Shown here piece by piece: positions 3,484 through 18,335 of a DNA stretch of 18,611 bases; position 1 is the first letter of the stretch, and each line of letters opens with the position of its first letter. The DNA is from Bacteroidales bacterium. Its GTDB lineage: Bacteria; Bacteroidota; Bacteroidia; Bacteroidales; Paludibacteraceae. Below the pieces are notes generated by a model. That model was not told the origin of the DNA and ran no database searches. It saw only the letters and a program-made list of their open reading frames with translations. The position numbers and the translations under genes are program-made. The stretch lies in NCBI GenBank assembly GCA_900771035.1, contig CAAGML010000123.1:1-18611 (forward strand). The letters run 5' to 3'.

Positions 3484-3870
3484 ATGGGAAAGTTCGTGAC
3501 AAACGGAGCATTGCTCCAATGCTCGATGGGTGCAGCACCTGTGCCTTTGACCGTGATTGGCATGAGGCCGATGTGCCAGAACATGCCAATGGCAAACATT
3601 ATGGATTTCGCTCCAATGGTCAACATAAAACCTTTCGGGGTCTGCCGTTCGATGGCAAATCCCACAGTGGCATCGGCAACGGCTGCTGCTATGGGTGTGC
3701 TTACGCCAATGCCTTGTATCCCAGTGGTTACAGGCCCTTGGTCACCTGGGGGGCAGGTTAAGGTTTGTATGTTGCCTGCGCTTTTGGACAATTGCAAGTG
3801 TATGTGTGCATACGGTGGCAACATATCTATCAACTTTCCCGGAAATGCTGCCATGGCAACGGGAAAATAA
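3484..3870 (+). CDS. PAAR-like spike tip protein (DUF4280 type)
   Basis: A 128-residue protein with the layout of the DUF4280 family: N-terminal VTNGALLQCSMGAAP, a stretch of hydrophobic and Met-rich residues (MCQNMPMANIMDF), a conserved FGVCRSMANPTVASATAAA segment, the CIPVVTGPW motif, and a C-terminal Cys-containing C-K-C-M-C-A-Y-G-G-N-I-S-I segment. DUF4280 proteins are treated as PAAR-like tips that sharpen the VgrG spike and can carry effectors. Cys residues are plentiful and could bind metal, as the tip of a PAAR cone does. The gene lies between the solenoid protein (3-base gap) and the RRF-like gene, two genes before vgrG, which fits a spike module. Its length is normal for a stand-alone domain, so no effector is fused to it. 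Confidence 0.85.
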   Translation: MGKFVTNGALLQCSMGAAPVPLTVIGMRPMCQNMPMANIMDFAPMVNIKPFGVCRSMANPTVASATAAAMGVLTPMPCIPVVTGPWSPGGQVKVCMLPALLDNCKCMCAYGGNISINFPGNAAMATGK

Positions 3871-4575: not shown

Positions 4576-4582
4576 ATGGTAT

Positions 4583-7500
4583 ATGGAAAAGACTGGAAAA
4601 GTTTTCGAATTGACGGTATGTAACCTGGGATGTGAGAAGAATGTAGCAAAGGATGCCGTATTTGATTGCGTCAACGAGAAGAATATCGATATTATTGTCG
4701 GAAAGTCGGGAAATGATTTCATCGTATCACGGATTGTTGGAATACTGGTCAGTGTTGAAGTGAACAAGCGAATTGGTACGCACAACAACATCAAGGCTCG
4801 TTTGAAATTAGTTCAGCAGACATCTGCAACAGACATGTCGCCGAAACTGAATGTCACTCTGCTGAAAAATGCTTTCCTCAAACGTGAGGTCAAGCTCAAT
4901 GCGATCGTGGATGATGAAAGTTATATGATTGCTGAAAAGTACTATGTTTTTGGTGTCAGACCGGTATATAACAAGAATGGTGCCACATATTATGTGGATT
5001 TGAATATCTACAGCTGGGATAAACTGATGGATATCGTCAAGTACAGCAAATCGTATGCCAATAAGAGGCTGGGCGATGATATCCTGAAAGGGTTTATGAG
5101 TGGGTATCAGAATGCTCCTGGATGTCAAACCTCTGGCATGAGAGTGCTAATTGACAATGAAACTGGAGATAGCCCAAAAGACAATAAAAACGAAAAGACT
5201 GCCGAACTCGCATTCCCGGTATTGGAGCAGTATGACGAAACGGAATATAACTTCCTGTTGCGCAATGCCAACAAATGTGGGGAATTCTTCTATTTCGAAA
5301 ATGGGACATTGAATCTGGGTCTTACCCGTGTGATGAAAAAATCGAATGGAGCAAACGAAGAGGAAGTTGTTACTGAAATTAAGGAGTTGTCATACGCCTC
5401 GATAGAATCGCTCTCTGACGAAAATAATGATGACGAGACGTTGACGGCTTTTTATCAGGATGTTGCCGGTAGAAAACTTTCAGCGAACAAACCTTATAAA
5501 CCAGTGAAGCTTAATGGCAATCTTGGTACACCTGCGCCTCCAAAAAAAGATGAGCCAAAAGATTGGGACTGTGTATTTGCCCCATTATGGTCTAGGGTGC
5601 TGGCAAGACTTTTCCAGTACGACAACATTGTGTCTTTTGGAATTGATAATGCCACTGAAGAAGTGTCTGTCAGTAGCTACAAAGATGTTATGAGTAACAG
5701 CTTTAATACAAATGTAGTTAATAAATACAAACCAAGTACTCCACAAAACTCTCAATTACGTTCTGGAAACAATAACGGGAATCAGGCTTATTGCAAATAC
5801 GTTCCTGATGACAAGTTGTTCAAGTTGATGGATAAGGCAAAACTTAATGTTTCTGACAACCAGTATCGCATCACTTTTGATGATGGACAGTTGAACCTGA
5901 AACTTGGTGATCTGGTGTCGTGCAGTGGCATTGGCAATGACGGACGATTTGTCGTTGTTGACGTTCATTCTGTGTTCGAGAAAGAGGATGTTGCTGCAGA
6001 AACAAAGATTGTCAACAGAATGGAAGTGACAGTCATTCCTGTTTACGATGATTGTCCAATTCCTCTGCCTGCCGATACCTGTCCAAAGTCACCTGCTAAT
6101 TTGCAAGGTAGTTCACCTGCCAAATTGCAGGGTAGTTCGCCTGCTAATAAGTTGCTATCTAATGATAGTCCTGGTTTTACTATGCGCAAAGCGACAGTTA
6201 CAGACAGTGAAGATCCATACAGGTTGAATCAGGTTTTGGTGACATACGATGGCGATAAAAATTCATCTGCCGAGTGGGTTAAAGTGTTGACGCCATTTGC
6301 CTCCAAGGAGAAAGGTCTCTCATGTAAACTGGGTGTAAATGACAAGGTGCTTGTTTGTAGTATAACCAAGGATGGCGTAACGGAATCATTTGTTGTAGGT
6401 TCCTTTTATGATGAAACAAATATTCCTCCATGCGGACAGCGAAAGTTTTCCTCAATAATTCGTTCGAAAAACGGCCAGTATATTGGTTTTGAGGAGGCGA
6501 AGTCTCCAGGTGGCATCCTGGCAAGTTTCTTACCAATCCTGAGTACGATGAAAAGCTTGATTCCTCCGCTGTATTCGGCTGTAGCGGCAATGGAACCCAA
6601 AAAAGGCCATGAAGAAGAAACTAAGCTGGCATTGGGCGGAATAGAAATCTCAGATAATTACGGACTTTTCACCATCGGTGCATCGTCAACCAGCAGGAAA
6701 GTTACAATATCGTCACCTTTCGGCACAGTGGGCATTGATGCCGCTATGGGTATAACAGTGTCTGCTCCGAACGGTAATGTCAAGATTGTAGGTAAGAATG
6801 TTGATATTGTGGCGGGAAACAACTTGACTTTGAAATCTGGTGCCAATATTGATTCTGGCCTGCTGACCACGAGAAGTCTAACTCTTAATGGGGCAATGTC
6901 TGAACTAAAGACACTGCAAGATGCCGTTTCAGGATTGTTTGATTTTCCAGCCTTGAGGTTTGTTGTTGAATTGTTGTTCAAACCAGTGGCAGGTACTTTG
7001 AAAGTTCATTCTGGCAGGTATCTCATGCTTGAAGCAGGCGATAATGAGGCATCTCTGCCGGAAGGAATGTTTCATAGGATTTTTTCTAAAAGAAGCAAAA
7101 CGGTGTTGGATAGTGAAGGTAAGTCTGAAGGTGTAGATGATGCAATCAGACGTATGGCGAATAAGATCGAAACTTGGGCTTATCTATTAAAAGTGTATAA
7201 AAATACATGGGTTCAAGAATATATGAATGCTTCTGAAAAGCGAGCAAGTTTATTGAAAATTATTATGAATGATTATGATCAAATAAAGGATAATAGTTCA
7301 TTTGTTGAAATTTCAGAAGTTAAAGTTAATGATTTAATAGATAGATGGATTAAGGGTGAAGCTGATATAACAAAAGAGGGTGTTGAAGGAGAACTTCATC
7401 GTAGGGTAGGCGGTGTATATCGTAAAAAAGTTGTTAGAGCCGTTAATTCGATTCGGGAGTCATACAAAAAACTATGGAATGATGATGATGATTTTGGGAA

Positions 7501-8014
7501 AAATCTTTTTACTGGAGCAGATAACAACAATGCAATAAATAATGCATACAATAAAGCTAAGGGTATAAGAAAACCAATGACAGACAATGATAAGCTTTTT
7601 AAGATTACGGATAAAAGTGTGTTGATAAATACCCTGTTTATCAACAGTGCGGAAATGAAAAAAACGTTGCGTGGAGGTGCACTGAGTCTTATTAAAAAGT
7701 ACTTTGATTATGACATATATAAAGAAGAAGATTTAAAAGATGATGCGAAATGGAATGCACTGATTGAATCAGTGGCGCCAAAGAATGAAGACTACATAAA
7801 GACAGCGTTAGCTAACTTTGGCATTGATATATTAGAAAACCTAATTCCAATTGAGTCGTTTAACACTTTTTGTTGGAGTAACGAAGCGAAAGGAGAGATT
7901 CTAATGTCTCAGAATGAAGGTTCGACATTATCCATCAATGGACAGGCTATCAAAGAGAGTTCTTCTGGTCTGGTGGGTTCTGTCAAAGCTGCGATGAGAA
8001 ATGCGACATTATGA
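4583..8014 (+). CDS. vgrG: VgrG/TssI spike protein with C-terminal insert domain
   Basis: An 1143-residue protein, long for a Bacteroidota VgrG. The N-terminal half is gp27-like and contains the typical QYDETEYNFLLRNANKCGEFFYFENGTL segment (around 215-242). A linker at about 503-523 has Ser-Pro-Ala repeats. The gp5-like OB fold follows at about 533-616 (VKVLTPFASKEKGL, GDKVLVCSI-like strand, FVVGSFYDE). Residues about 685-760 are regular short strands (VTISSPFGTVGID, NVKIVGKNVDIVAGN, LTLKSGANI) forming the triple-stranded needle. Residues about 833-1093 are a helical, Lys/Asp/Asn-rich domain encoded by markedly AT-rich DNA, followed by a return to needle-like sequence (GEILMSQNEGSTLSINGQ). 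The trimer forms the spike hub on which the baseplate assembles. The stop overlaps the E1-like start (ATGA). The second ATG before the gene (4576) is in another frame and closes early, which supports 4583. Confidence 0.85.
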   Translation: MEKTGKVFELTVCNLGCEKNVAKDAVFDCVNEKNIDIIVGKSGNDFIVSRIVGILVSVEVNKRIGTHNNIKARLKLVQQTSATDMSPKLNVTLLKNAFLKREVKLNAIVDDESYMIAEKYYVFGVRPVYNKNGATYYVDLNIYSWDKLMDIVKYSKSYANKRLGDDILKGFMSGYQNAPGCQTSGMRVLIDNETGDSPKDNKNEKTAELAFPVLEQYDETEYNFLLRNANKCGEFFYFENGTLNLGLTRVMKKSNGANEEEVVTEIKELSYASIESLSDENNDDETLTAFYQDVAGRKLSANKPYKPVKLNGNLGTPAPPKKDEPKDWDCVFAPLWSRVLARLFQYDNIVSFGIDNATEEVSVSSYKDVMSNSFNTNVVNKYKPSTPQNSQLRSGNNNGNQAYCKYVPDDKLFKLMDKAKLNVSDNQYRITFDDGQLNLKLGDLVSCSGIGNDGRFVVVDVHSVFEKEDVAAETKIVNRMEVTVIPVYDDCPIPLPADTCPKSPANLQGSSPAKLQGSSPANKLLSNDSPGFTMRKATVTDSEDPYRLNQVLVTYDGDKNSSAEWVKVLTPFASKEKGLSCKLGVNDKVLVCSITKDGVTESFVVGSFYDETNIPPCGQRKFSSIIRSKNGQYIGFEEAKSPGGILASFLPILSTMKSLIPPLYSAVAAMEPKKGHEEETKLALGGIEISDNYGLFTIGASSTSRKVTISSPFGTVGIDAAMGITVSAPNGNVKIVGKNVDIVAGNNLTLKSGANIDSGLLTTRSLTLNGAMSELKTLQDAVSGLFDFPALRFVVELLFKPVAGTLKVHSGRYLMLEAGDNEASLPEGMFHRIFSKRSKTVLDSEGKSEGVDDAIRRMANKIETWAYLLKVYKNTWVQEYMNASEKRASLLKIIMNDYDQIKDNSSFVEISEVKVNDLIDRWIKGEADITKEGVEGELHRRVGGVYRKKVVRAVNSIRESYKKLWNDDDDFGKNLFTGADNNNAINNAYNKAKGIRKPMTDNDKLFKITDKSVLINTLFINSAEMKKTLRGGALSLIKKYFDYDIYKEEDLKDDAKWNALIESVAPKNEDYIKTALANFGIDILENLIPIESFNTFCWSNEAKGEILMSQNEGSTLSINGQAIKESSSGLVGSVKAAMRNATL
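6089..6151 (+). repeat. In-frame 24-base tandem repeat in the VgrG linker
   Basis: Two full 24-base units (6089-6112 and 6113-6136) and a partial third (to 6151) encode S-P-A-N-L-Q-G-S, S-P-A-K-L-Q-G-S and S-P-A-N-K. The units differ at a few positions (ctaat/ccaaa, caa/cag). They form a flexible Ser/Pro/Gly-rich linker between the gp27-like part and the OB fold of VgrG, and are a candidate site for length variation by slippage. Confidence 0.85.
7081..7860 (+). other. AT-rich insert encoding a variable VgrG domain
   Basis: This in-frame segment of vgrG is strikingly AT-rich; for example 7261-7320 has about 13 G/C in 60 bases by hand count, while the E1-like gene just downstream (8341-8400) has about 34 in 60. 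It encodes roughly residues 833-1093, mostly helical and charged, with no recognised enzymatic motif. It separates two stretches of needle-type beta sequence. The composition break suggests a separately acquired, possibly strain-variable cargo or receptor-binding domain. Confidence 0.6.
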
Positions 8015-9087
8015 TACGCATAAATGACACACATTTCTCGTGCTTTGTGGTTGTCGGTTGTGGTGCCTTGGGGAACGAGGTGTTGAAGAATCTGGCACTT
8101 ACAGGTGTTGGGAGACTGATAGTTGTTGATTTTGACTATGTGGAGGAAGTGAACCTTGATCGCTCAGTGTTGTTCGGGCGTGAGGATGTAGGGCGACCAA
8201 AAGTTGAGGCAGCATCTGACGGGATAAGAAGGCTGAATCCTGACGTGGAGGTCATTGCAATAAATGGCGACATTGCATACGATGTGGGCATTGGGTTGCT
8301 GAGAGAGGCGGATGCCATAATAGGCTGTGTGGACAGCCGTTGGGCGAGATATTGCATAAATCGCCTTGCCTTCAGGGCTGGGCGACAGTGGGTTGACGGT
8401 GGGATATTCGGGCTCACAGGCACTGCAAGGGTGTTTACGCCAGGGAAAAACTGCTATGCCTGTTCGCTGACGACTGACGAACTCAATGAGTTGAGGCGCA
8501 GGATGCCTTGTTCGGGCATTATCCGCAGGGCTGTCGAGTCCGGTCATACCGTGACAACCGCCATAGCAGCCTCGGTGATAGGAGCAATCCAGGCTCAGGA
8601 GGCATTGAGGATAGCGACGGGAGAGGAGTCGCCACTTGTAGGGCGTATGGCTGTCTATGAAGGCGAGACGATGGAGATGAGGGTGGTGCGTTTCGAGGCT
8701 TACGATGATGATTGCCCATGCCATGAGGAGTGGAGTCCTGTGATACAAACCGGAATAACTACTGATATGAGTGTCCGTGACGTGTTGGAGAAAGGTGGGG
8801 TGGAAAGTTTTGAACTGAGGGACGACTGTTTCGTGGACCACATCGTCTGCCGTAAGGATGACAGCCGTCACAGGGTTATGCTGCCGGGCAGGAAGGTGGC
8901 TGGCTTTGTCGAAAGTGACCCGTTGTTGGGACAGGTGCCGCTCAGCGGCTACTACCAGAATGAATACAAGGTTATAGACAAATCGTTCCCTTATCAGGAA
9001 CTTACGTTGAACGAATTGGGCGTGACGGGCAGGGATGTCCTTCGTGCCAGTTTCGTTGGTGAGGAAAAATACATAGCTTTGAAATGA
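8011..9087 (+). CDS. E1-like (ThiF/MoeB/UBA superfamily) activating enzyme
   Basis: A 358-residue protein that should adenylate the C-terminus of a ubiquitin-like protein. Visible motifs: nucleotide-binding VVGCGALGNEVL (Gly loop 16-21), acidic residues D40 and D42 (VVDFDYVEEVNLDRS), N48 and R51, K64 in GRPK, and the Mg-binding CVDSR with D108. A zinc site is likely from C148-x2-C151 and C235-x-C237. C167 in MPCSGI, shortly before the helix GAIQAQEALR, is the best candidate for the thioester Cys. Residues about 240-358 are an extra C-terminal domain absent from plain ThiF/MoeB and could be an E2-docking module. It overlaps vgrG and the TssG-like gene by 4 bases on each side, so it is translated as part of the T6SS operon. 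A thiamin or molybdopterin role is unlikely, since no such genes are nearby and Ub-like and E2-like genes are. Confidence 0.85.
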   Translation: MIRINDTHFSCFVVVGCGALGNEVLKNLALTGVGRLIVVDFDYVEEVNLDRSVLFGREDVGRPKVEAASDGIRRLNPDVEVIAINGDIAYDVGIGLLREADAIIGCVDSRWARYCINRLAFRAGRQWVDGGIFGLTGTARVFTPGKNCYACSLTTDELNELRRRMPCSGIIRRAVESGHTVTTAIAASVIGAIQAQEALRIATGEESPLVGRMAVYEGETMEMRVVRFEAYDDDCPCHEEWSPVIQTGITTDMSVRDVLEKGGVESFELRDDCFVDHIVCRKDDSRHRVMLPGRKVAGFVESDPLLGQVPLSGYYQNEYKVIDKSFPYQELTLNELGVTGRDVLRASFVGEEKYIALK

Positions 9088-9827
9088 TTAACGAGATAAA
9101 TGCCGAAATGATGCTGAACTACCTATATCCGGAGCTTTCGGGGGAGTGGGTGGCGCATTGCCGTGGCACGTTCTACCGTAACTACAGCGATGATGCGATG
9201 TCGGTGGATCCAGCCTCGAAATCGGTGGAACTGTCGCGTGACGGTTTCCTGAAAATGCTTCCACCTGAGTATATCTCGTTGGAGAAGGAGCAGGAGAGCG
9301 ATGAGCGTCTCAGGGAGAGGATTGAGACTCTGACCGAGGCTTTCCTGCCTGTCGATTCGCTGATGTTCCGTCAGCAGCTGCATGTCGAGCGGACGGTGGC
9401 GGGAATGTTGAGGATACGTACCGCTTTTGTCCTGAAACGCATTTTCGGCATAGACTTAGACGGTATCACGAACCCGTATGTGCGTGACGCAGCCTTGCTT
9501 CTGCCGTATGTCCGTCAGAGCCGTGGCGACATCGGCTGGGTGAGGCGTATGCTGGAGTCTGTTACCCTCTGTCCGGTCGAGATGACCGTCGGACGTTGGT
9601 CAGACGACGATTCTTCGCGCGCATGGATGCCTTACGTCCACTACAACGTTGTTTGCGATGGTCTGACACAAAGCGATTTCCAACGTGAATACGCCCGTCT
9701 GCAGGAATTGTCCGTTTTTGTCATGGAACATTGGATGCCTGCCGAGGTTGTGGTGAAAATAGATTTGATAACCCATATTCGCAAGGGTGAGTCGGCGATA
9801 CTGGACTACTCTTGTGAGATGGACTGA
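9084..9827 (+). CDS. tssG: TssG-like T6SS baseplate protein
   Basis: A 247-residue protein without signal or membrane segments. TssG joins two TssF copies to form the baseplate wedge that surrounds the VgrG hub. The features seen are typical but weak: a helical N-terminal part, a LLPYVRQSRGDIGWVRRMLESVTLCPVEM segment (from about residue 138) like the TssG pattern of LPF...G....L..LL..PV.I, and a C-terminal VFVMEHWMPAEVVVKIDL segment like the family's YFLPA-type ending. It is shorter than proteobacterial TssG (about 330 residues) but close to Bacteroidota versions. The start overlaps the E1-like stop (ATGA), and the TssK-like gene follows after 13 bases. The order TssG-TssK-TssE-TssF strengthens the call. 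Confidence 0.65.
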   Translation: MINEINAEMMLNYLYPELSGEWVAHCRGTFYRNYSDDAMSVDPASKSVELSRDGFLKMLPPEYISLEKEQESDERLRERIETLTEAFLPVDSLMFRQQLHVERTVAGMLRIRTAFVLKRIFGIDLDGITNPYVRDAALLLPYVRQSRGDIGWVRRMLESVTLCPVEMTVGRWSDDDSSRAWMPYVHYNVVCDGLTQSDFQREYARLQELSVFVMEHWMPAEVVVKIDLITHIRKGESAILDYSCEMD

Positions 9828-9840
9828 TAGCGTTGACCGT

Positions 9841-10977
9841 ATGAATATAAATTCTAAAATAAACCTCTCGCCAGGGGTGCAGTTGACAGCCGAGACGCTC
9901 AACACCCTTTTCGCCTCTTTCTACGAACGCCAACTGGCGGCTGTCCGTTCGGTGAACATTGGCAGGATTGGCGTGATGCCGGGGCATACCAACAGGGTGC
10001 GTGGCGTTTTTGTCCGCGACACCATCGAGGTGGAGATTCACGACCTGATGGCGGTTCTTCCTTCGGGCATTATCGCCAATATCGATGAGACTGCTGTAGT
10101 CAAAGTGCCATTGCTCTATGGCGACACGTACTACTTTACGGTCGGGGTGTCGGATGCTTTGGTCAGTTTTGAGTCGAACGGCGTTCCGTTCGTGCGCAAC
10201 GAATACAGCTTTGCCATCTCCTCGTTCGACGAGATGATTGCCGCATCTGCTTTCCCCCTCATCCGTTTCAGCGTTAAGGACGGAGTCTTTTCGATTGACG
10301 ACCAGTATATAATGCCGTGTCTTGCCACGGACGGAGATTCCCGTATTGCGGGATGTGTCGGTGAGATGGCAGACCGTCTGCGCACACTTGCCGGACATCC
10401 CAATATAGCCGACGAGGCACTGCGTACGTCGCTTCTTGGTTTTGCTTTCCGTCTTGATGGCTTTTGTGCAGGTGCGAGGAGAGTGGCTGATTTGGTTCTC
10501 ACCACCCGTGAGGTGGCCTCCGCCATTGATTATTTCATCGTCCGCCCGAACAGGCAGGAGGCTGAAGCTCCTATGGAACCATCCTTTTATGACATTGACC
10601 GATGGTTCGTCTGGTTGAAGGATTACATTGACGGCGCGACCGCAATACTGGACGGTGTGGTGGTCGAGAAGGAGAAGATTGACCTGGAGGCTATCAAACA
10701 GGAACTCCGTGCCGAAATCTATGACCATATACAGCCCGACCTTGAGCGTATGGTCAACGAGCGTGTCGATAACCTCTCCGACGCTTTGCAGTCACGCATC
10801 GAGGATGTCCTCAAGGATTACGTCAACGGCAAAGTGCTTGTCGAACTGCGCGATTCGCTCCGCCTACAGTTGGATGCCGACCTGCGTTCTTCCCTTTACG
10901 CCGACCTCTATCAGGCACTTTATGCTGTCCTTTTTGTACCAAAAGAGGATGAGGATGCCTTCGTCCCTCTGATTTAG
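9841..10977 (+). CDS. tssK: TssK-like T6SS baseplate adaptor with long C-terminal coiled coil
   Basis: A 378-residue protein. ATG 9841 is chosen over an upstream in-frame GTG (9787) because the latter would reach into the TssG-like gene and add residues unlike TssK. TssK trimers link the baseplate wedge to the membrane complex. The N-terminal two thirds fit TssK: INLSPGVQLTAETLN in the place of the family's W..G..L...HF, a phage receptor-binding-protein-like beta domain, and FPLIRFSVKDGVFSIDDQYIMPCL (about 138-161) like the family's P..R......v..d..y.PPcL. From about residue 274 on, the protein is a nearly continuous amphipathic helix (KEKIDLEAIKQELRAEIYDHI and on to 366) in the place of the globular domain that binds TssL/TssM in other systems. 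This suggests a different membrane partner. Confidence 0.7.
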   Translation: MNINSKINLSPGVQLTAETLNTLFASFYERQLAAVRSVNIGRIGVMPGHTNRVRGVFVRDTIEVEIHDLMAVLPSGIIANIDETAVVKVPLLYGDTYYFTVGVSDALVSFESNGVPFVRNEYSFAISSFDEMIAASAFPLIRFSVKDGVFSIDDQYIMPCLATDGDSRIAGCVGEMADRLRTLAGHPNIADEALRTSLLGFAFRLDGFCAGARRVADLVLTTREVASAIDYFIVRPNRQEAEAPMEPSFYDIDRWFVWLKDYIDGATAILDGVVVEKEKIDLEAIKQELRAEIYDHIQPDLERMVNERVDNLSDALQSRIEDVLKDYVNGKVLVELRDSLRLQLDADLRSSLYADLYQALYAVLFVPKEDEDAFVPLI

Positions 10978-10989
10978 TGATGATAATAT

Positions 10990-11445
10990 ATGGATTTTCT
11001 CTCTCTCCCATTGAGTGTCGTAAAAGGAAAATTGAGCCGTGAAAGCGATATGAAACGCTCGATTGACTCTAACCTCGCCACTATGATAGCGGCTGCCCGT
11101 TTTTCGTGCGTGGCTGATCCTGATTACGGTTTTGTCTTCAACAATTACCGTTTCAACATCTTCAACGAGAACGAAGGGGTGATTTTCGATTCTAAGCCAC
11201 AGACGACATTACCAACCGAACGGAATATATACAATCTCAAATTGAGTGGCAAATCCCTGAACGTAAATACGTTTGCCGCTGAAATAAGCAAGGTGGTCGC
11301 ATCTTACGAACCACGTTTAAGCGATGTGAAGGCTTCGATGACCTACGTTCGTGAACAGAAACTTGTATATGTGACTGTCAATGGCGTGATTGCTGAGACA
11401 GGCGAAGAATATACATTTACAACAACCGTTAAAGTCTGGAATTGA
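10990..11445 (+). CDS. tssE: TssE-like (gp25) T6SS baseplate protein
   Basis: A 151-residue protein of the gp25/TssE family, which connects the baseplate to the first sheath ring. It shows SIDSNLATMIAA (24-35), DPDYGF (43-48, matching the family's DP-x-Y/F-G) and a YEPRLSDV motif (106-113) with the conserved Glu-Pro-Arg-Leu, followed by strands ending in VKVW. Length is typical (130-160). The last bases overlap the next gene start (TGATG), so TssE and TssF are probably translationally coupled. Confidence 0.85.
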   Translation: MDFLSLPLSVVKGKLSRESDMKRSIDSNLATMIAAARFSCVADPDYGFVFNNYRFNIFNENEGVIFDSKPQTTLPTERNIYNLKLSGKSLNVNTFAAEISKVVASYEPRLSDVKASMTYVREQKLVYVTVNGVIAETGEEYTFTTTVKVWN

Positions 11446-13148
11446 TGGATAACAATACTATACTCGAAATCAGGCAGCGTTCCGCCGAACTTATGCGTCA
11501 GGCTTTGCTGATATGGCAGTCGGGGGTACATTCCGAGAACTTAGAGGGTACGGACAGTGACCCTGTTTTTCAGATGCTTATGACTGCCATGGCGTATCAG
11601 TTCAACGAGATGGACTCTAACCTTGAGTCAATCAGGCAACAGGTGATGGACGATTTTGCCGAAGTGTTGATGCCTTACCGTGTGAACGGTGTCGTACCGT
11701 CGTCGTTTGTTATGCAGTGCCAACCTTCCGGCGACCTGGCTGACGTGACGCTGGACAGCGACTCCGTCTTTACAGCTAAGGGAACGGACCTGCAGTTCAT
11801 ACCGTTGCTCCGTACACGTGTCCTGAACGCTTCGGTTGATAAGGTGGTACGTATTGACGGCAGGCGGTGGAAGGTCTCGCTGCTTTTCCCCGAGTCTGTT
11901 ACCACGCTCGATGGTTTCGCCTTTGCCATCAGCGACCTTATATTCCGTGACCTCTCATTAACGGTGAACGGACATCCCCTCCCCTTGATTAAACCCTGGG
12001 ATATCCACAATATGCCGATGACTGAGCCTTTCGACTTCGTCACGCAACTCTATAACCGTACCCCTGTCTTTGATGCCGGGTCGCTGCCTATGGACGTTAT
12101 GGCACGTCAGGATGTCTGCCTCTTCTGTGTGGGGAAGGGAACCGGTGGGACTCTCTCGTTGCCCGAAGAGACCCATAGCCTTGATTTCATATTCGAGTTC
12201 TTTGGGATTGACGACGATTTCGTACTTGACAAGACGAAACTGACCCTGAACGCCAACATCCTGGTCAACGCCAAGGTCAATGTCGCTTCGTTGTCGGAGA
12301 AATCCCCAATAGCACGGATTTCGGACACGGACGGTCAGAAGTTTATGAAACTCCTTACGCCTCCCAAAGACCAGATACTGAGCCAGTACAATGTCACCGT
12401 CCGCCGTGTGATGGCTGAGCGTTTCAACCTTAGCGGTTTGGTCAGGTTGCTGGACTGCTTGATAGCCAAGTTCCATTCCGACACATATGCCTTCCTGGCA
12501 TTCGGACAGCAGGAGGGCGACAGTGCGCTGAACAGTCTCATGCAGTTGATGACCCGGTTGCGCAATCAGGCCGCCGCCGGCAACAGGGACGTCAGCAAAG
12601 CCGACAGGCAGGGACTCTATCTTTTCCTCTCAGCCGCCGATGATAAGGTGGTGCGTCTGTCCGGCAGCTTTGATATCCGCTACCTGACCACCAACGGAGC
12701 TATTGATGAGTCGCAATTAAGTGCTAACACCTTGTTCACTATGCCTGTAGGTGTTGATGCACAGCAGTTTCGTATGATTTCCGTGCCTGTGTTAGGCTCA
12801 GATGGACGCTTGGCAGGCAAGGAGGGGGATGCCGAAGTGGCTTATTGGGTTTCGTCCTCGGACCGTATAGTGACACCTGCCGACATCCGTATGTTCTGTA
12901 TTGCAACGTTGATGGAAATGCTTTCCGTTGACAGGGATATGGTTCGTTCGGTGAATGTGTCGCGTATGCTCTCTCCCGATTCGCCTGTGGGGTATGCCGT
13001 CAGCGTAGAGGTGCGGCTGGTCGATTCGTCTTTGATGCGTAAGACTGTCGGCGACCGTATCCCCCGTTTGGAGTGTCTGCTCGAAAACCTGCTTCGCGTA
13101 CGTAGTATAGGTATTTATCCGATGAACGTTAAGATAGAAATGAATTAG
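11445..13148 (+). CDS. tssF: TssF-like T6SS baseplate protein
   Basis: A 567-residue protein. The ATG at 11445 overlaps the TssE stop (TGATG) and is preferred over the TTG one codon upstream. TssF is the main wedge subunit of the T6SS baseplate. Family-like features are the N-terminal helical part with ENLEGTDSDPVFQMLMTAMAYQ and VMDDFAEVLMPY, a long beta-rich middle, FEFFGIDDDFV near residue 255, and a C-terminal gp6-like ending DRIVTPADIRMFCIATL followed by alternating helices and strands. Length agrees with TssF (about 590-620 elsewhere). Two bases separate it from the ubiquitin-like gene, so both must be expressed together. Confidence 0.8.
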   Translation: MDNNTILEIRQRSAELMRQALLIWQSGVHSENLEGTDSDPVFQMLMTAMAYQFNEMDSNLESIRQQVMDDFAEVLMPYRVNGVVPSSFVMQCQPSGDLADVTLDSDSVFTAKGTDLQFIPLLRTRVLNASVDKVVRIDGRRWKVSLLFPESVTTLDGFAFAISDLIFRDLSLTVNGHPLPLIKPWDIHNMPMTEPFDFVTQLYNRTPVFDAGSLPMDVMARQDVCLFCVGKGTGGTLSLPEETHSLDFIFEFFGIDDDFVLDKTKLTLNANILVNAKVNVASLSEKSPIARISDTDGQKFMKLLTPPKDQILSQYNVTVRRVMAERFNLSGLVRLLDCLIAKFHSDTYAFLAFGQQEGDSALNSLMQLMTRLRNQAAAGNRDVSKADRQGLYLFLSAADDKVVRLSGSFDIRYLTTNGAIDESQLSANTLFTMPVGVDAQQFRMISVPVLGSDGRLAGKEGDAEVAYWVSSSDRIVTPADIRMFCIATLMEMLSVDRDMVRSVNVSRMLSPDSPVGYAVSVEVRLVDSSLMRKTVGDRIPRLECLLENLLRVRSIGIYPMNVKIEMN

Positions 13149-13150
13149 TT

Positions 13151-13468
13151 ATGGAAGAGTTCTTTTTGAATATATCATACCGGAACAAAAAGGTCAAGTT
13201 CCGTGTCGTAAACCCTTCTTTGCCTCTTGGTACGCTTATGTCGAACCTTCGTCACGCCACTGGCAAGGACGGACGGTTGATTTTTGACTTCCCGAACATC
13301 GACGAGACCGGTGCCCCTCTGGATTACTATTTCGGCAAGGAGGACACCACGGTCAACGAGATACGGGTAATGCGCCCTCGCATTGGCAAGGAGGAGCAGA
13401 CGCTCGCCGACTATAACATACAGAACGGCGACACCGTTTTTTTGGTACCTGACCCATTTCCGGGATGA
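13151..13468 (+). CDS. Ubiquitin-like beta-grasp protein ending in Gly
   Basis: A 105-residue protein. Two patches look strikingly like ubiquitin: RLIF (42-45), as in the ubiquitin strand QRLIFAGK, and TLADYNIQNGDTVFLV (84-99), which parallels ubiquitin TLSDYNIQKESTLHLV. The N-terminal FFLNISYRNKKVKFRVVNPSLPLGTLMSNLRHA gives the hairpin and helix of a beta-grasp. An insertion of about 30 residues (46-82) lies between the two matching patches. The protein ends exactly on Gly105 (PDPFPG), so a C-terminal Gly is exposed without proteolytic trimming, which fits a substrate for the E1-like enzyme upstream and the E2-like enzyme whose start overlaps its stop (ATGA). It has one terminal Gly, not Gly-Gly. 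A non-conjugated role like YukD of type VII secretion is possible but less likely here. Confidence 0.85.
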   Translation: MEEFFLNISYRNKKVKFRVVNPSLPLGTLMSNLRHATGKDGRLIFDFPNIDETGAPLDYYFGKEDTTVNEIRVMRPRIGKEEQTLADYNIQNGDTVFLVPDPFPG

Positions 13469-13980
13469 CTGGTCGTGACAGGCGTCTGGCTTACGAGTAT
13501 GGGGAATTGCTTAAACGTCTGGAACATCACCCCGAAATCCGGCTTGTCGTCGAACATAAGAACGCTAATGGCTTGCCAAACAGGTATCTTGTCTGGTATT
13601 CAGTACGTTCCATAGCAGGAATAGATGAGCAAACCGCCAAGCCTCTCTACGCTGACCGCTTCGTTATGCGGATTGATATTCCTTCAGACTATCCCTCCGT
13701 GGATGCTCCTGCGGTATTCCGTTTTCTGACCGAAGACCCTGAGACACATGTGAAAATAGCACACCCGTGGCATCCCAATATACGTTATTACGGTGATTTG
13801 GCTGGTCGTGTCTGCCTGAATGCCTTCGACAGTTTCACAGACCTGGCTTGGGGGGTGCTGAGGGTGGGGGAGTACCTTCGTTACGAACGCTATCACGCCG
13901 TCAACGAACCTCCTTACCCCGAAGACCAACGTGTCGCCGCCTGGGTGATACGTGTCGCCGAACCTAATGGATATATTTGA
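13465..13980 (+). CDS. E2-like ubiquitin-conjugating enzyme
   Basis: A 171-residue protein with a canonical UBC fold pattern: N-terminal helix (RRLAYEYGELLKRLEHHPEI), the beta meander (RFVMRIDIPSDYPSVDAPAVFRF) with the conserved YP (76-77) before a P-x-V-x-F strand, the HPN motif at 103-105 (HPWHPNI), and the catalytic Cys117 in GRVCLNAF. These active-site elements are intact, so it should accept a thioester-linked ubiquitin-like protein. HPN to Cys spacing is 12 residues, a little longer than the usual 8, due to the loop RYYGDLAG. A Trp (W129) and a helix WGVLRVGEYLRYERYH follow as in UBC proteins. The gene starts within the stop of the ubiquitin-like gene, which implies matched synthesis. 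Confidence 0.9.
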   Translation: MTGRDRRLAYEYGELLKRLEHHPEIRLVVEHKNANGLPNRYLVWYSVRSIAGIDEQTAKPLYADRFVMRIDIPSDYPSVDAPAVFRFLTEDPETHVKIAHPWHPNIRYYGDLAGRVCLNAFDSFTDLAWGVLRVGEYLRYERYHAVNEPPYPEDQRVAAWVIRVAEPNGYI

Positions 13981-13997
13981 CTTTTGCGCCAAAAAGC

Positions 13998-15140
13998 ATG
14001 AAACATATAATAATACTATTACTTGTCGTTTTGTTGCCTTTGATGGCGGAGGCTCAGAGCGTGCGTGAGATAACAATCTCGGCTGATAAGCCTTACACCG
14101 ACAATTTCTCGCTTGCCAACGAGTCAGGCGATATGGACGTAATGATTAAGTTCTCGTTCAACGAGGCTGACAATCAGCTGACCGTCTCTATGACCTCCTA
14201 CCGTGGCTTGTTCGTGTTCCGTGAGGACACACGCTATAAACAGGTCGTCAAATTCGGGAAACTGAGGATAAAAGAACTGCCATACGTAGTGACTGGTGAG
14301 GAGTTACCCTACAAAATGCCCTGCAAGTTCAAAAAACAGTTGGGCAGGCACCGCAAAAACTTCGTTTTCAAGCGTTGGCTGAACTATTCGGGGCTTCTGC
14401 CTGAACCTATGGAATATGTGATGGTCAACGATGTAGTCGAACAGAAGTTCGGCATCGTCGGCGACAAACGAACCTCTGTATCCGTTACCCTTGGCGATGT
14501 GATGATTATGGAGCCTAAGACCAACCTCTTCAAAGAGAGTTACTACAGGTTCCTGCGCTTCGTGCGTGTCAACACAAGGTACAACATAACCATCGAGCGT
14601 GACCCATGTTTTGCTATGGAGGAGCAGATTTCCATTGCCTCGCAGCAGAAAGTGGCGGCAACCCAGGCTCTCGAAGGCTTGCGTAACACCTTCCCTGAGC
14701 GTGTCACCAATATGCAGGAGACTTTCGACCTCTTCAGCAAGACCAAGGAAATGCTTGTCCAGCAGTACCCTAAACGCGATACGGTCAGCGATTGTCCACA
14801 GTTGCAAGCTCTTAACGACAGTTTCAATGTCGTGGTTGACTCCATACTCGCATTCAAATGTAAGTTGGCAGTTTCCAGCGACTCTACTATGTCCGTCGCC
14901 AACCCTACGTTCATCCTCTCGGCTGCTTACGCCATTGATATGAAGGTCTCCCGTTGGCAGCTTACCACTGATGCCCTTGAGCGTGCTGATATAATTAAAT
15001 TCTGTAACGAGCGCATTGAGAGCGTCAACGACTATGTCAAACGTCACGGCTTGCGTTCCAAAGGAATGCGTGAGGCATACGACATTATGCAGAAAGCCGT
15101 CAGTTACTATCAATCCACATGCCATATTCGTAAACAGTGA
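13998..15140 (+). CDS. Secreted protein of unknown function, T6SS envelope candidate
   Basis: A 380-residue protein. ATG 13998 is preferred over an upstream in-frame TTG (13977) that overlaps the E2 stop, because it begins a textbook signal peptide (MKHIIILLLVVLLPLMAEA, cut before Q20). The mature N-terminal part (20-200) is beta-rich with a charged middle (KFKKQLGRHRKNFVFKRW); the rest is mainly helical, with Cys residues that could form disulfides. I do not recognise the family. Together with the next two genes and the PEGA gene it makes up the exported part of this system, and so is a candidate for periplasmic ring or anchor in place of TssJ/M or TssN-R. That role comes from position only. 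Confidence 0.6.
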   Translation: MKHIIILLLVVLLPLMAEAQSVREITISADKPYTDNFSLANESGDMDVMIKFSFNEADNQLTVSMTSYRGLFVFREDTRYKQVVKFGKLRIKELPYVVTGEELPYKMPCKFKKQLGRHRKNFVFKRWLNYSGLLPEPMEYVMVNDVVEQKFGIVGDKRTSVSVTLGDVMIMEPKTNLFKESYYRFLRFVRVNTRYNITIERDPCFAMEEQISIASQQKVAATQALEGLRNTFPERVTNMQETFDLFSKTKEMLVQQYPKRDTVSDCPQLQALNDSFNVVVDSILAFKCKLAVSSDSTMSVANPTFILSAAYAIDMKVSRWQLTTDALERADIIKFCNERIESVNDYVKRHGLRSKGMREAYDIMQKAVSYYQSTCHIRKQ

Positions 15141-15961
15141 GACGTATTTTGAACATATTGGTATTGGTTTTTGCTATTCCATCATTGCTCTATGCTCAGG
15201 ACAACGGTGGAATGGACGATTACGATGCCTATACCCTCACCGTTCAGACTCGTCTCTCGCAGTTCAATTCCGATATGATGGAACTCTGTTCCCATGTCGC
15301 CACTGCCTCATCTGCCGGTATCATCGACCTGAAACGCAACTTCAATTCTCTCGATGTCAGGTGGAACACCTATTGCAATGCCCAGCAGGGATATATTGCC
15401 GACAAGGAGACGCTCCTTGCCATCGTCGCCCAGTATCAGCAGACACGGCAGATGGTGCTTGACTCGATAGACCATTGCTCCTTGCGTCTCAATGCCGAAA
15501 CCGTGTTCAACGATGCCCTGACATTCATGAACTCCAAGTTGCCCGAATACGATGCATTGATTAGGAAATGCGGCAAACTCTCGCTTTCCGAGAAGACCGC
15601 TCCGCAGCTGGAACGCCTTCAGACCAGTGAGCAGTTGACCTTTTCTGATGTTACCGCTAAGTACCAATCCGCCAAAGAGGCGGTCACTCTCAACCCTTCG
15701 CTCAAAAGCAAGGAACAGCAGCTCGACAATCTCTACCTTGACCTCTCCGCCAAGTCAGGACAGGTGCAGGAGGCTAAATATAAACCTTTCATCGAGCGTA
15801 TCAAGGATTACCTCCTCGGTTTCGCCGCCGTGGCCATCTTGCTGATGTTTGTCAGCATGATTCAGAACAAGATTGTCGCCACCAAGCAGATGAAAGAGTC
15901 GCTCAAGAAACTTAAGGAACAATATATTAAGGAAGGACAGGACGATATCCCGTCTATATGA
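15137..15961 (+). CDS. Exported helical protein with C-terminal membrane anchor
   Basis: A 274-residue protein whose GTG start overlaps the previous stop (GTGA). Signal peptide MRRILNILVLVFAIPSLLYA precedes Q21. The mature part, about 25-220, is a series of helices with heptad-like spacing (for example LDSIDHCSLRLNAETVFNDALTFMN in outline) suggesting a periplasmic helical bundle. One membrane segment follows at about 223-246 (YLLGFAAVAILLMFVSMI), then a Lys-rich tail (QNKIVATKQMKESLKKLKEQ), which by the positive-inside rule should lie in the cytoplasm. This is a type I topology well suited to carry signals or force from periplasm to baseplate. No family recognised; a membrane-complex role is inferred from topology and neighbours. 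Confidence 0.65.
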   Translation: MRRILNILVLVFAIPSLLYAQDNGGMDDYDAYTLTVQTRLSQFNSDMMELCSHVATASSAGIIDLKRNFNSLDVRWNTYCNAQQGYIADKETLLAIVAQYQQTRQMVLDSIDHCSLRLNAETVFNDALTFMNSKLPEYDALIRKCGKLSLSEKTAPQLERLQTSEQLTFSDVTAKYQSAKEAVTLNPSLKSKEQQLDNLYLDLSAKSGQVQEAKYKPFIERIKDYLLGFAAVAILLMFVSMIQNKIVATKQMKESLKKLKEQYIKEGQDDIPSI

Positions 15962-15983
15962 CACAGCCAACGCCTAAAACACA

Positions 15984-18335
15984 ATGAAAAAAACACTCTG
16001 GATATTACTTTTGTTGCTCGTATCTGCCATTGCGGTCTCTTGCGACAGTGAGGAGTCGGACGAACAGGATGCCGTCCAGCCCATTCTCTCAGTGACGGAG
16101 GTCGAAAACTGCGATAATTACAAGAGACTCAAAGTCTATGCCAAACTCCAGAACCCGCAAAACGTCGAAAATATGATGAGCATGGACAACCTGACAGTAC
16201 GTGAGTTCAACCACCGCAATATGGAGGTGAACGGCTCCCTGACAGCCAAGGTTACCGACATCAGGAATATCGGTTCGGATATGATTGACAGCATAGGAAT
16301 TAAACTGTTGGTGCTTGTCGATTTGACGCTCCCTCAGAACCTCGTCGATAGCCAGTTCATCTACGTGTCGATGATGAGGAGGCTATACACTTCCGATAAC
16401 CTTTTCCTCTCTTTCATTCACGAGGACAGTGTCTCCTGTTCCTATATGGCTTCCGACTACGTCTTGTCGAATTATTTCGTGTCTGAGTCTGACACACTGA
16501 CACACAAAAGCCTCTATCGCTCGATTTACCGGAAATGTTGCGAACTGAACGATTCCACCTCCTTTCTCGGGGCGAATCCCCTCTGTGCGATGATAGTCTT
16601 CTCTGACGGAAACGTGTATGGCATGGATGCCACCCCTATTGACCCCGACCACTATCAGTTGCAGACGGATATTCTTGATGAGATTGTCCGTAAGGGTCGG
16701 CCGCTCTATTATTTCAACCTTGACAATTCCTCCGTCGGGGGTGTCAACGATGCCGCCAATTTCATGCAGCTTGTGGCTGAAAGGTCGCATGGCAGATATA
16801 TGGAGTCTTTCGATTGGGTCGTCTGCGAAAACGACCTTTTAGAGAATTTCAACGTCAATTACAACGATTATCTGCTGACTCTCGAATACCCCTCTTCCCG
16901 TATTTTCGATGGCGGAAACAGACTGGAGATTTATCTGAATGCCAACGACTCCTCTTATCTCCTTGCCGACACCTCGTTCAAGGCAGGCTCGGTCTGCAAA
17001 CCCATAATCATCGATGGTGCGCCACAGTCTCAGGTGGTCTTGCAGGGCATCTTGCTTGCCATCCTGCTTGTCATACTCGTATATGTGGTCTGCCAGCTGG
17101 TTGTTCCTTATGTCTTGTATCAGATATTCCTGCGGAAACACACCACCACCTATGTCGGACCTAACACCACGCTGAACGGCGTTACCGTGGGTGACGTGTG
17201 CTATTTATGCAAAACCCCGTTCGGGGTTGGCGATAGGGTAGTGGCAAAGTGTGCCCACACCATGCACGAAGATTGCTGGAAGGAGAACGACTATCACTGT
17301 ACCGAGTATGGCCGCAAGTGCAGGCATGGTTCGCATTATTATAACCAGGACGACCTTTTCGACCCCAAGAATGCCTCTTTCTATATGGTGTGGCTCATCG
17401 TCGCCGTCTTTATCGCCATTCTGGCATGGGTGGGATTTATCGTCTATGACCAGGAGGTCACCTTCAATATCCTTCGGAACATCTATATGCGGATACTAAA
17501 CCTTCAGGCAGGCACGCCCGAATATTCCGCTGCCGTTGACAATCTTGAAAACTCCTTCGACCAGATGCCATCTTTCGGTGCTTTCCTGGGCTTCGAGTTT
17601 ACCTTCTGTCTTGGTCTCATCGCATGTATCGGACGGTTGACCGTTCGCAATCTCCTTGAGTTGTTTGTCAAGTCTCTTATATCCGGTGTGTGCGGTTTCC
17701 TCTTTTTCCTGATTGGTTTGGTTGTGAATCTGGTGACGGATGTCCACGAACTGTTGAACCTTTTGGATTGGGTGCCTTGGACTGCCACTGCTGTGGTGTC
17801 GGTTTTCTGTTCCACATACAACACCAGGCTCCGCACAAAAAGAAAAAAATTCTTCGGCATGGTTCTTGTCGGCATCATCTCCATGTTCATTTGGGACATC
17901 GTTTTCTCCTCATCCTCCTCCGACTACAGGTTGATGCTCTTTCTCTCTAACCTTATTTTCTCGCTCGGTCTTACGCTTTCCATAGCCGCTCCTATGCCAA
18001 GTTCCGAGAACTATGTTCTTCATGTCTCAGGCTGCATCAAGGATATGGATATTGCCATCAACAAATGGTTCAGGCAATCCGCTTCCTCCCGTGTCACCAT
18101 TGGCCGCTCCATCGACTGCGGTATCCAGACCTCGTGGGACATCCAGGGAAACGTCGCCGCCGTCCATGCCGAGGTAATCTCCTTCCGCCGTCAGATATAC
18201 CTCGTCCCCCTCGAAAACGGAGTCTATTCTGGCAAAAAAACGTTGAAGGTCAACCGTCGTTACCGCCTCTACCATGGACGTAGCTTCACCATCGGAACAA
18301 CCACATTCACCTTCCGCGAGCGCGACCTCCACTGA
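15984..18335 (+). CDS. Multipass vWA-like/RING-like/FHA-like protein, candidate E3
   Basis: A 783-residue protein. A leader with a lipobox-like end (IAVSC20) precedes an acidic stretch. Residues about 95-300 look like a vWA fold: KLLVLVDLT (incomplete MIDAS), AMIVFSDG, and a final helix FMQLVAERSHGRYM. A first membrane helix lies at about 352-380. A RING-H2-like zinc motif follows: C406-x2-C409-x13-C423-x-H425-x2-H428-x2-C431-x7-C439-x6-C446, with H448/H451 as alternative last ligands. Then come a membrane helix at about 466-490 and about five more before residue 690. The C-terminal FHA-like domain has VTIGRS (704-709), VHAEV (H728) and FTIGTTTFTF. Charge placement puts the vWA-like part in the periplasm and RING and FHA parts in the cytoplasm, where E1, Ub-like and E2 would be. 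The FHA phosphothreonine residues are partly replaced (AAVH instead of S-R-x-H). E3 activity is inferred. Confidence 0.75.
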   Translation: MKKTLWILLLLLVSAIAVSCDSEESDEQDAVQPILSVTEVENCDNYKRLKVYAKLQNPQNVENMMSMDNLTVREFNHRNMEVNGSLTAKVTDIRNIGSDMIDSIGIKLLVLVDLTLPQNLVDSQFIYVSMMRRLYTSDNLFLSFIHEDSVSCSYMASDYVLSNYFVSESDTLTHKSLYRSIYRKCCELNDSTSFLGANPLCAMIVFSDGNVYGMDATPIDPDHYQLQTDILDEIVRKGRPLYYFNLDNSSVGGVNDAANFMQLVAERSHGRYMESFDWVVCENDLLENFNVNYNDYLLTLEYPSSRIFDGGNRLEIYLNANDSSYLLADTSFKAGSVCKPIIIDGAPQSQVVLQGILLAILLVILVYVVCQLVVPYVLYQIFLRKHTTTYVGPNTTLNGVTVGDVCYLCKTPFGVGDRVVAKCAHTMHEDCWKENDYHCTEYGRKCRHGSHYYNQDDLFDPKNASFYMVWLIVAVFIAILAWVGFIVYDQEVTFNILRNIYMRILNLQAGTPEYSAAVDNLENSFDQMPSFGAFLGFEFTFCLGLIACIGRLTVRNLLELFVKSLISGVCGFLFFLIGLVVNLVTDVHELLNLLDWVPWTATAVVSVFCSTYNTRLRTKRKKFFGMVLVGIISMFIWDIVFSSSSSDYRLMLFLSNLIFSLGLTLSIAAPMPSSENYVLHVSGCIKDMDIAINKWFRQSASSRVTIGRSIDCGIQTSWDIQGNVAAVHAEVISFRRQIYLVPLENGVYSGKKTLKVNRRYRLYHGRSFTIGTTTFTFRERDLH

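What the first reader, a model, noticed from the sequence alone, without database searches (positions are those of the whole stretch)
8011..18335. Apparent complete ubiquitin-like cascade interleaved with a T6SS baseplate operon
Four cascade components occur on one strand within one tightly spaced operon: E1-like (8011-9087), ubiquitin-like protein with terminal Gly (13151-13468), E2-like with HPN and catalytic Cys (13465-13980) and a RING-like membrane protein (15984-18335). They are placed between vgrG and tssG and directly after tssF, with 4-base or 2-base junctions, so this is not a neighbouring defence island but part of the injection machine's own transcript. Known bacterial Ub-like pathways that I am aware of act in antiviral defence (CBASS, Bil-type) or sulfur transfer; I do not know of one built into a contractile injection system. 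Plausible roles: conjugation to a baseplate, sheath or effector protein to time assembly or firing, or marking of cargo for loading.
Basis: partly seen in the sequence, partly recalled or inferred. Interest (0 to 1): 0.95.

Follow-up and report, generated by a model that had tools for sequence, protein, structure and literature searches.

The report
Ubiquitin-like cascade inside type VI secretion
Some bacteria, many of them from animal guts, carry genes resembling a full ubiquitin-tagging pathway (activator, tag, carrier and likely ligase) inside the gene cluster for a contractile injection machine, in the same order across dozens of genomes, so the tag likely helps control that machine, a role for bacterial ubiquitin that my searches did not find described.

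Summary
Between 8011 and 18335 lie an E1/ThiF enzyme, a 105-residue ubiquitin-fold protein ending in Gly, an E2 with HPN and catalytic Cys, and a membrane protein with vWA, RING-H2 and FHA parts, on one strand among vgrG and baseplate genes, overlapping or at most 22 bases apart. It recurs: a genome scan gave 103 relatives of the ubiquitin-like gene; of the best 80 loci, 69 hold all ten core genes on one strand in one order, and ten of the other eleven are cut by contig ends. Catalytic residues are invariant. Four distant T6SS loci keep Ub and E2; three also keep E1, RING and a JAB gene, in another order. In 393 genomes of one order the gene occurs in 5, each with a T6SS sheath gene within 16 kb. 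TssN, the usual anchor with a built-in ubiquitin-like domain, matched in only 1 of 14 such genomes. Two genomes carry a related cassette on the contig of another injection system. Best reading: a T6SS subtype with its own conjugation cascade, likely acting on baseplate or hub. Activity and substrate are untested. My searches found no description; two key papers were unreadable.

The parts
28..375 (+). Hcp-type tube protein
   Evidence: PF17642 TssD 4.6e-8
3484..3870 (+). PAAR-like DUF4280 tip protein
   Evidence: PF14107 5.3e-28
4583..8014 (+). VgrG-type hub/spike protein
   Evidence: Phage_base_V 1e-6; vgr_GE 1.9e-5, under its cut-off
8011..9087 (+). E1-like activating enzyme (ThiF family), predicted catalytic Cys167, predicted Zn ligands C148 C151 C235 H238
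   Evidence: PF00899 5.1e-54; these four Cys and the His in 75 of 75 aligned sequences
9084..9827 (+). TssG-like baseplate protein
   Evidence: no Pfam or NCBIfam hit; named because its family profile hits one gene of about 300 aa in other T6SS loci, E down to 2e-19, and by place
9841..10977 (+). TssK-like baseplate protein (a GTG start at 9787 is also possible)
   Evidence: TIGR03353 3e-4, under its cut-off; profile hits the TssK-size gene of other loci
10990..11445 (+). TssE (gp25-like) with a clade-specific insertion bearing Lys84
   Evidence: TIGR03357 3.7e-7, under its cut-off; K84 70 of 70; insertion absent from the Ub-free rows except a different longer loop in L096
11445..13148 (+). 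TssF-like baseplate protein (TTG start at 11442 also possible)
   Evidence: PF05947 0.041, under its cut-off; profile hits TssF-size genes of other loci down to 1e-25
13151..13468 (+). ubiquitin-like protein, C-terminal PDPFPG
13465..13980 (+). E2-like conjugating enzyme, HPN motif 103-105, Cys117
   Evidence: W102 H103 P104 N105 C117 invariant in 29 of 29 and in 12 of 12 including four distant members
13998..15140 (+). conserved protein (g13977) with N-terminal signal-like helix, unknown (TTG start at 13977 also possible)
   Evidence: present in 78 of 80 loci; hydropathy
15137..15961 (+). conserved protein (g15137) with N-terminal and C-terminal hydrophobic segments, unknown
   Evidence: present in 76 of 80 loci; hydropathy
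15984..18335 (+). membrane protein: lipobox-like start, vWA domain (95-292), membrane helix, RING-H2 (406-446), further membrane helices, FHA domain (about 676-783); likely E3
   Evidence: model pLDDT 85.6; vWA and FHA fold matches; seven RING ligands 55 of 55, eighth 54 of 55

Best explanation
This is a type VI secretion gene cluster that carries E1-like, ubiquitin-like, E2-like and RING-type genes in one run with its baseplate genes, and these likely form a conjugation cascade that would tag a part of the machine itself. Likely steps: the E1 adenylates the Gly end of the ubiquitin-like protein and passes it to the E2 cysteine; the membrane protein, with RING and FHA predicted in the cytoplasm and vWA in the periplasm, acts as E3; and the tag goes onto a baseplate or hub subunit as the baseplate docks, deciding when a tail is built or fired. 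Shown: genes, order, invariant catalytic residues, a ubiquitin fold in a confident model, no TssN match in 13 of 14 genomes. Inferred: chemistry, E3 role, topology, substrate. TssE, with its lineage-specific loop and invariant Lys84, is one concrete candidate substrate. In TssNQOPR systems TssN holds a fused ubiquitin-like domain proposed to dock the baseplate (PMC10781749); here a separate, conjugatable one may do that job.
For: Ten-gene order E1-TssG-TssK-TssE-TssF-Ub-E2-g13977-g15137-RING in 69 of 80 loci, all on one strand. In L020 the ten-gene block stands whole among SusD, TonB-receptor, hydrolase and dehydratase genes, so baseplate and cascade genes travel together even without tail genes nearby. 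Three distant T6SS loci with blocks swapped keep Ub-E2 together and E1 next to TssG. E1 and E2 catalytic residues invariant, RING ligands nearly so. Ub fold, with residue 105 as last partner of ubiquitin residue 76 in 13 of 50 listed rows; Gly end kept in four distant members. Ub is the most conserved of the ten (mean pairwise identity 76.8%; E2 60.6, E1 57.6, baseplate proteins 44.7-50.5, others 36.6-39.5). Ub in 5 of 393 genomes of the order, all TssC-positive and on the same contig (P 2.5e-6 leaving out the centre genome). JAMM-motif genes in three distant T6SS loci.
Against: No biochemistry. Ub, E2 and RING matches of single sequences are under Pfam cut-offs. No JAB gene is seen in the core of the window-type clade, and a search of ten such genomes found none (the tool warns an empty answer shows little), so reversal there is unexplained. 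Ub could be a non-covalent scaffold, as in EccD, to whose ubiquitin-like domain the model fits slightly better than to ubiquitin. TssN absence is not specific: 7 of 15 TssC-positive genomes without Ub also lacked a TssN match, and many genomes are incomplete MAGs. Two genomes carry the cassette without a TssC match, and in one of them the Ub frame runs two residues past the Gly. In L020 no tail genes were found within the stretches fetched. One genome has its E1 on another contig. Lys84 of TssE is not kept in two of three distant loci.
Confidence: 0.6

Rival explanations
1. The cascade tags cargo (effectors or VgrG tips) for loading rather than structural parts of the machine.
For: Among the window's gene families the one nearest upstream of E1 is a PEGA, RRF-like, PAAR or VgrG gene in 67 of 73 loci with E1; VgrG and the RRF-like gene differ strongly between the window and its sister locus (30% and 58% identity) while E1, Ub and E2 stay at 93-100%, as for a fixed loader of changing cargo; in genome G074 a PAAR gene and two eCIS_core genes lie upstream of the cassette.
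Against: Ub-E2 and E1 keep company with baseplate and membrane genes in both gene orders, and in L020 the block stands without the cargo-type genes.
Confidence: 0.2
2. The ubiquitin-like protein works without conjugation, as a structural adaptor like the ubiquitin-like domain of EccD or TssN, and E1 and E2 serve another role.
Against: The Gly end, E1 Cys167 and E2 Cys117 are invariant; an E2 with HPN and Cys has no known use without transfer (general knowledge).
Confidence: 0.12
3. It is a phage-defence or sulfur-transfer module that merely sits in the T6SS operon.
For: The Bil operon with E1, E2 and Ub is a defence system (PMC11354881 passages and its reference titles); the E1 resembles MoeB and CBASS E1-E2 models; in genome G074 an nSTAND NTPase gene precedes the cassette.
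Against: Order is fixed with T6SS baseplate genes in 69 of 80 loci; Ub, E2 and RING match no PADLOC model; the tail ends PG, not the GG of sulfur carriers (recalled), and an E2 is present.
Confidence: 0.08

Closest known systems
Bacteroidota T6SS-iii with TssNQOPR membrane complex (PMC10781749: passages, and section 11)
   Same: TssC of family PF17541, TssB-like, ClpB/ClpV-like, Hcp of family PF17642, TssE/F/G/K-like, PAAR-like and VgrG genes; a vWA domain in an envelope protein (TssR there); a ubiquitin-like fold in the system (TssN there)
   Different: no TssN match in 13 of 14 genomes checked; E1, E2, separate Ub and a RING/vWA/FHA protein added; no profile match between TssN and the RING protein or Ub. 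The paper reports the membrane complex, or part of it, in all 443 T6SS-iii found
Bil operon BilABCD (PMC11354881, passages)
   Same: E1, E2 and ubiquitin-like genes together; JAB gene in distant T6SS loci here
   Different: single-domain E1 and single ubiquitin-like domain; RING/vWA/FHA membrane protein; T6SS setting; no JAB seen in window-type loci
Predicted Ub/JAB/E1/E2 operons of Iyer and colleagues, row 6d, with a Bacteroides member (PMC1779556, passages)
   Same: Ub-like, E1-like, E2-like and JAB genes in one operon
   Different: their E2 lacks the classical histidine, ours keeps HPN; the passages seen mention no injection system
BubCD and CBASS E1-E2 enzymes
   Same: E1 fold: Citrobacter BubCD is a weak E1 match in the PDB (7.7e-7); CBASS-type E1-E2 models match part of the E1
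   Different: E1 and E2 are separate genes here; no cyclase among the 17 window genes scanned
T7SS EccD / YukD ubiquitin-like parts of a secretion machine
   Different: no E1 or E2 and no conjugation known there (recalled)
Ubiquitin-like protein of Bacteroides fragilis (PDB 8hm2, title only)
   Different: near-human ubiquitin by its title; not compared further
Archaeal E1/E2/RING/ubiquitin cluster (PMC5654768, search listing and start of abstract only)
   Same: E1, E2, RING and ubiquitin in one prokaryote
   Different: an archaeon; no injection system in what I saw

Membership tests
T6SS-iii | core tail and baseplate genes (TssB, TssC PF17541, Hcp, ClpV, TssE/F/G/K, VgrG) | tested here: met
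   sister contig by Pfam/NCBIfam; TssC and ClpV relatives upstream in 8 of 9 window-type genomes whose upstream stretch was fetched; window genes, several under curated cut-offs; cross-match with other T6SS loci
T6SS-iii | TssN membrane protein | tested here: not met
   PF17555 in 1 of 14 Ub-positive genomes, there on another contig; 8 of 15 Ub-negative TssC-positive genomes match; incomplete MAGs are among them
T6SS-iii | TssR | tested here: inconclusive
   PF17643 in 1 of 14 Ub-positive and only 2 of 7 control genomes
T6SS-iii | TssO, TssP, TssQ | not tested
   no model searched
E1 (ThiF/UBA) enzymes | adenylation domain plus a catalytic Cys | tested here: met
   PF00899 5.1e-54; Cys167 75 of 75; its role as the catalytic Cys is predicted
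E2 enzymes | UBC domain with HPN and catalytic Cys | tested here: met
   invariant motif; the 27 PDB sequences matched are E2-type entries; single-sequence Pfam match under cut-off; fold not predicted
Ubiquitin-like modifiers | beta-grasp fold and C-terminal Gly | tested here: met
Ubiquitin-like modifiers | covalent attachment to a target | not testable with these tools
   needs biochemistry
RING-type E3 | eight zinc ligands with RING-H2 spacing | tested here: met
   last pair spaced C-x6-C instead of C-x2-C (recalled norm); Pfam zf-RING_2 under cut-off
RING-type E3 | ligase activity | not testable with these tools
   needs biochemistry
Bil | ubiquitin-like protein with two domains and two-part E1 | tested here: not met
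   105-residue single-domain Ub, 358-residue E1 with one ThiF stretch
CBASS type II | E1-E2 fusion with a nucleotide cyclase | tested here: not met
   separate genes; only partial matches to E1-E2 models; no cyclase family
Extracellular CIS / BIS | phage-type sheath, FtsH-type ATPase, DUF4157 | tested here: not met
   sheath is TssC PF17541 and the ATPase is ClpB/ClpV-like on the sister contig; BIS gene list from PMC7394362 (parts 1-2 of 6 read)

The most novel reading that the evidence does not exclude
A class of contractile injection systems in Bacteroidota uses covalent ubiquitin-like tagging as its assembly switch: E1, E2 and a membrane RING/vWA/FHA ligase mark the baseplate at the membrane, taking over the docking job that TssN does with a fused ubiquitin-like domain. 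The same cassette serves extracellular injection systems in other Bacteroidota.
Probability: 0.35. Interest if true: 0.96.

Novelty: new variant of a known kind. Interest (0 to 1): 0.92.

Why it matters
The bacterial ubiquitin-like cascades I know of act in phage defence or sulfur transfer. A complete E1-Ub-E2-RING set built into a secretion machine would give bacterial ubiquitin signalling a role in building or firing a weapon, suggest how T6SS loci without a recognisable TssN may anchor, and offer a small natural system with cultured hosts for asking how such cascades evolved. It also points to a gut T6SS subtype that surveys relying on TssN models could miss.

Tried and rejected
Homology of the RING protein, Ub or g13977 with TssN: hhalign gave E 0.026 over 39 columns, 0.42 and 0.31, probabilities under 2%; rejected. 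Seven of the nine TssN rows used there are PF17555 matches; two (L108, L109) were picked by place only. A phage relative of E2: no match among phage records. Promoter and terminator scans of 4500-18611: 21 promoter-like sites against 18.8 expected and 20 terminator-like sites against 12.5 (sd 4.3) expected; not informative about the transcript. Sheath family PF05943 found nothing in ten genomes; the sheath here belongs to PF17541. E1 loss in L045: rejected, an intact E1 lies on another contig of that genome. A JAB gene in window-type loci: the loose JAMM pattern had scattered hits in the 80 loci and the stricter H[ST]HPG form one, in L020, which proved to lie in a dehydratase frame. Structure comparison of the RING protein listed the vWA and FHA parts; RING ligases were not among the listed rows, which hardly tests that part.

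Literature: searches listed no paper that I recognised as describing this linkage (104 matched 9,424 papers and listed 20, so it shows little). No mention of ubiquitin in PMC12210884 or PMC4714493; the latter says that 2 of 115 Bacteroidales T6SS loci fit none of its three architectures, and these were not identified here. PMC7159879 and PMC3482391 were seen in passages only. Two papers by Burroughs and colleagues on prokaryotic RING and ubiquitin domains (PMC5938088, PMC5881585) are not held, so earlier description of parts of this cannot be excluded.
Full report
What is there. The window is a run of + strand genes of a Bacteroidota-type T6SS: Hcp-like, PEGA, coiled-coil, PAAR-like DUF4280, an RRF-like gene, VgrG, then E1, TssG-, TssK-, TssE- and TssF-like genes, Ub, E2, two unknown genes and the RING protein. 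Junctions from VgrG to RING are overlaps of up to 4 bases or gaps of at most 22. The window's own genome is not held. The nearest relative found is a Paludibacteraceae MAG (L001) whose proteins from E1 to g15137 are 92-100% identical, Ub 100%, RING 76%, VgrG 30%. Upstream on that contig lie a ClpB/ClpV-like ATPase, a weakly matching TssB, TssC (PF17541, 1.4e-101) and further Hcp proteins. Relatives of that TssC and ClpV lie upstream in 8 of 9 window-type genomes whose upstream stretch was fetched; the ninth is L020. So this is a T6SS related to T6SS-iii.

Conservation. Of 103 genome places encoding a relative of Ub, the best 80 were kept; two of these (L079, L080) are contigs of one MAG. Presence by single-sequence search: E1 73, TssG-like 75, TssK 76, TssE 78, TssF 79, E2 79, g13977 78, g15137 76, RING 76 of 80. 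All ten are present in 69 of 80, all on + and in the same order. Ten of the other eleven end before the missing genes; one (L045) lacks only E1, which lies on another contig of that genome. Mean pairwise identity over the 69 is 76.8% for Ub, 60.6% for E2, 57.6% for E1, 44.7-50.5% for the four baseplate proteins, 36.6-39.5% for g13977, g15137 and RING; a few misassigned open frames are in these sets. Records named in the scan include Bacteroides, Parabacteroides, Prevotella, Alistipes, Mediterranea and Millionella. In L020 (Parabacteroides distasonis An863) the ten-gene block stands between metabolic and envelope genes, and no tail gene was found in the stretches fetched on either side; whether that genome has tail genes elsewhere was not searched with the right family.

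Distant relatives. In 393 genomes of the order of Bacteroides mediterraneensis, TssC is found in 18 and Ub in 5, all five TssC-positive with Ub 4.6-15.7 kb from TssC on the same contig. Leaving out the centre genome, which was picked for having Ub, the chance of this is 2.5e-6. The four others (L092/L099, L093, L094/L100, L095/L101) carry Ub and E2; three also have RING and E1, with E1 next to TssG, and the E1-baseplate and Ub-E2-RING blocks are swapped in order. L093 ends before E1 and RING. The three complete ones have a gene with a JAMM motif between E2 and RING; one passes the Pfam JAB cut-off, two are under it, and all three match the JAB protein of G074. A related frame lies on another contig of the fourth genome. 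In the 80 window-type loci no JAB gene was seen, and the JAB of L092 found nothing in ten such genomes, a search the tool warns shows little by itself.

Against other Bacteroidota T6SS. TssN (PF17555) matched 1 of 14 Ub-positive genomes, on another contig in a genome that also has a second TssC, and 8 of 15 Ub-negative TssC-positive ones. The 15 are Ub-negative, or for G200 and G033 E2-negative with no Ub match in the locus scanned. So TssN is nearly absent here, but its absence is not specific. In 14 loci of TssC-positive genomes without Ub no E1, Ub or E2 profile match at E <= 1 was found; one RING-profile match (0.0018, L105) is a coiled-coil lipoprotein. PMC10781749 states that the membrane complex or part of it is found in all T6SS-iii of 1253 complete genomes (section 11); the present type either escaped those models or was rare there.

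Outside T6SS. In 296 genomes of the phylum, E2 matched 4: the centre genome and three without a TssC match. Two of these (G074, G168) carry E1-Ub-E2, a JAB protein and a RING-profile match in one run. In G074 Pfam shows JAB, vWA and FHA domains and an ion-channel gene after them; its RING-like part has lost several zinc ligands and looks U-box-like by eye. Upstream of the G074 cassette lie an nSTAND gene, a PAAR gene and two eCIS_core genes. The only sheath match of each genome is on the same contig, about 21 kb away in G074 and 44 kb in G168, with gp25, tube and hub genes around it in G074; the G168 surroundings were not scanned. In G168 the Ub frame continues two residues beyond the Gly. The third genome (G190) has E2 next to a gene with a JAMM motif and no sheath match. 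The cassette may therefore serve more than one kind of contractile system, or may be an older separate module; two genomes cannot decide.

How it likely works, and limits. Shown: genes, order, invariant residues, fold. Inferred: that E1, E2 and RING act in sequence, that the target belongs to the machine, and that docking or firing is controlled. PMC10781749 reports that TssN has a ubiquitin-like cytoplasmic domain and interacts with TssK (passages); a separate ubiquitin-like protein could fill that place. TssE of this clade has an insertion with an invariant Lys84 (70 of 70), absent from TssE of Ub-free loci except for a different longer loop in L096, and the Lys is not kept in two of three distant TssE: a candidate, no more.

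Literature. The searches named under Tried and rejected found no description; full text is limited to openly licensed papers, and two relevant papers could not be read.

Noticed in passing
3892-4575: Gene related to ribosome recycling factor (PF01765 4.4e-11) inside the T6SS run, only 58% identical in the sister locus.
   Followed up: no
4583-8014: VgrG is only 30% identical to that of the sister locus L001 while E1 to g15137 are 92-100%, as if exchanged by recombination.
   Followed up: no
L117-L120: E1-Ub-E2-JAB-RING-like cassette on the contig of extracellular contractile injection genes, with an nSTAND NTPase gene just upstream of E1 in G074.
   Followed up: partly
L121 9294-10767: E2-like gene next to a gene with a JAMM motif in a genome without a sheath match.
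   Followed up: no
L045: E1 absent from the locus but intact on another contig; its RING protein has lost the eighth zinc-ligand Cys.
   Followed up: partly
10990-11445: TssE insertion with invariant Lys84, absent from most TssE of Ub-free loci.
   Followed up: partly
L020: Parabacteroides distasonis An863: the ten-gene block stands apart from tail and cargo genes, among SusD, TonB-receptor, hydrolase and dehydratase genes.
   Followed up: partly
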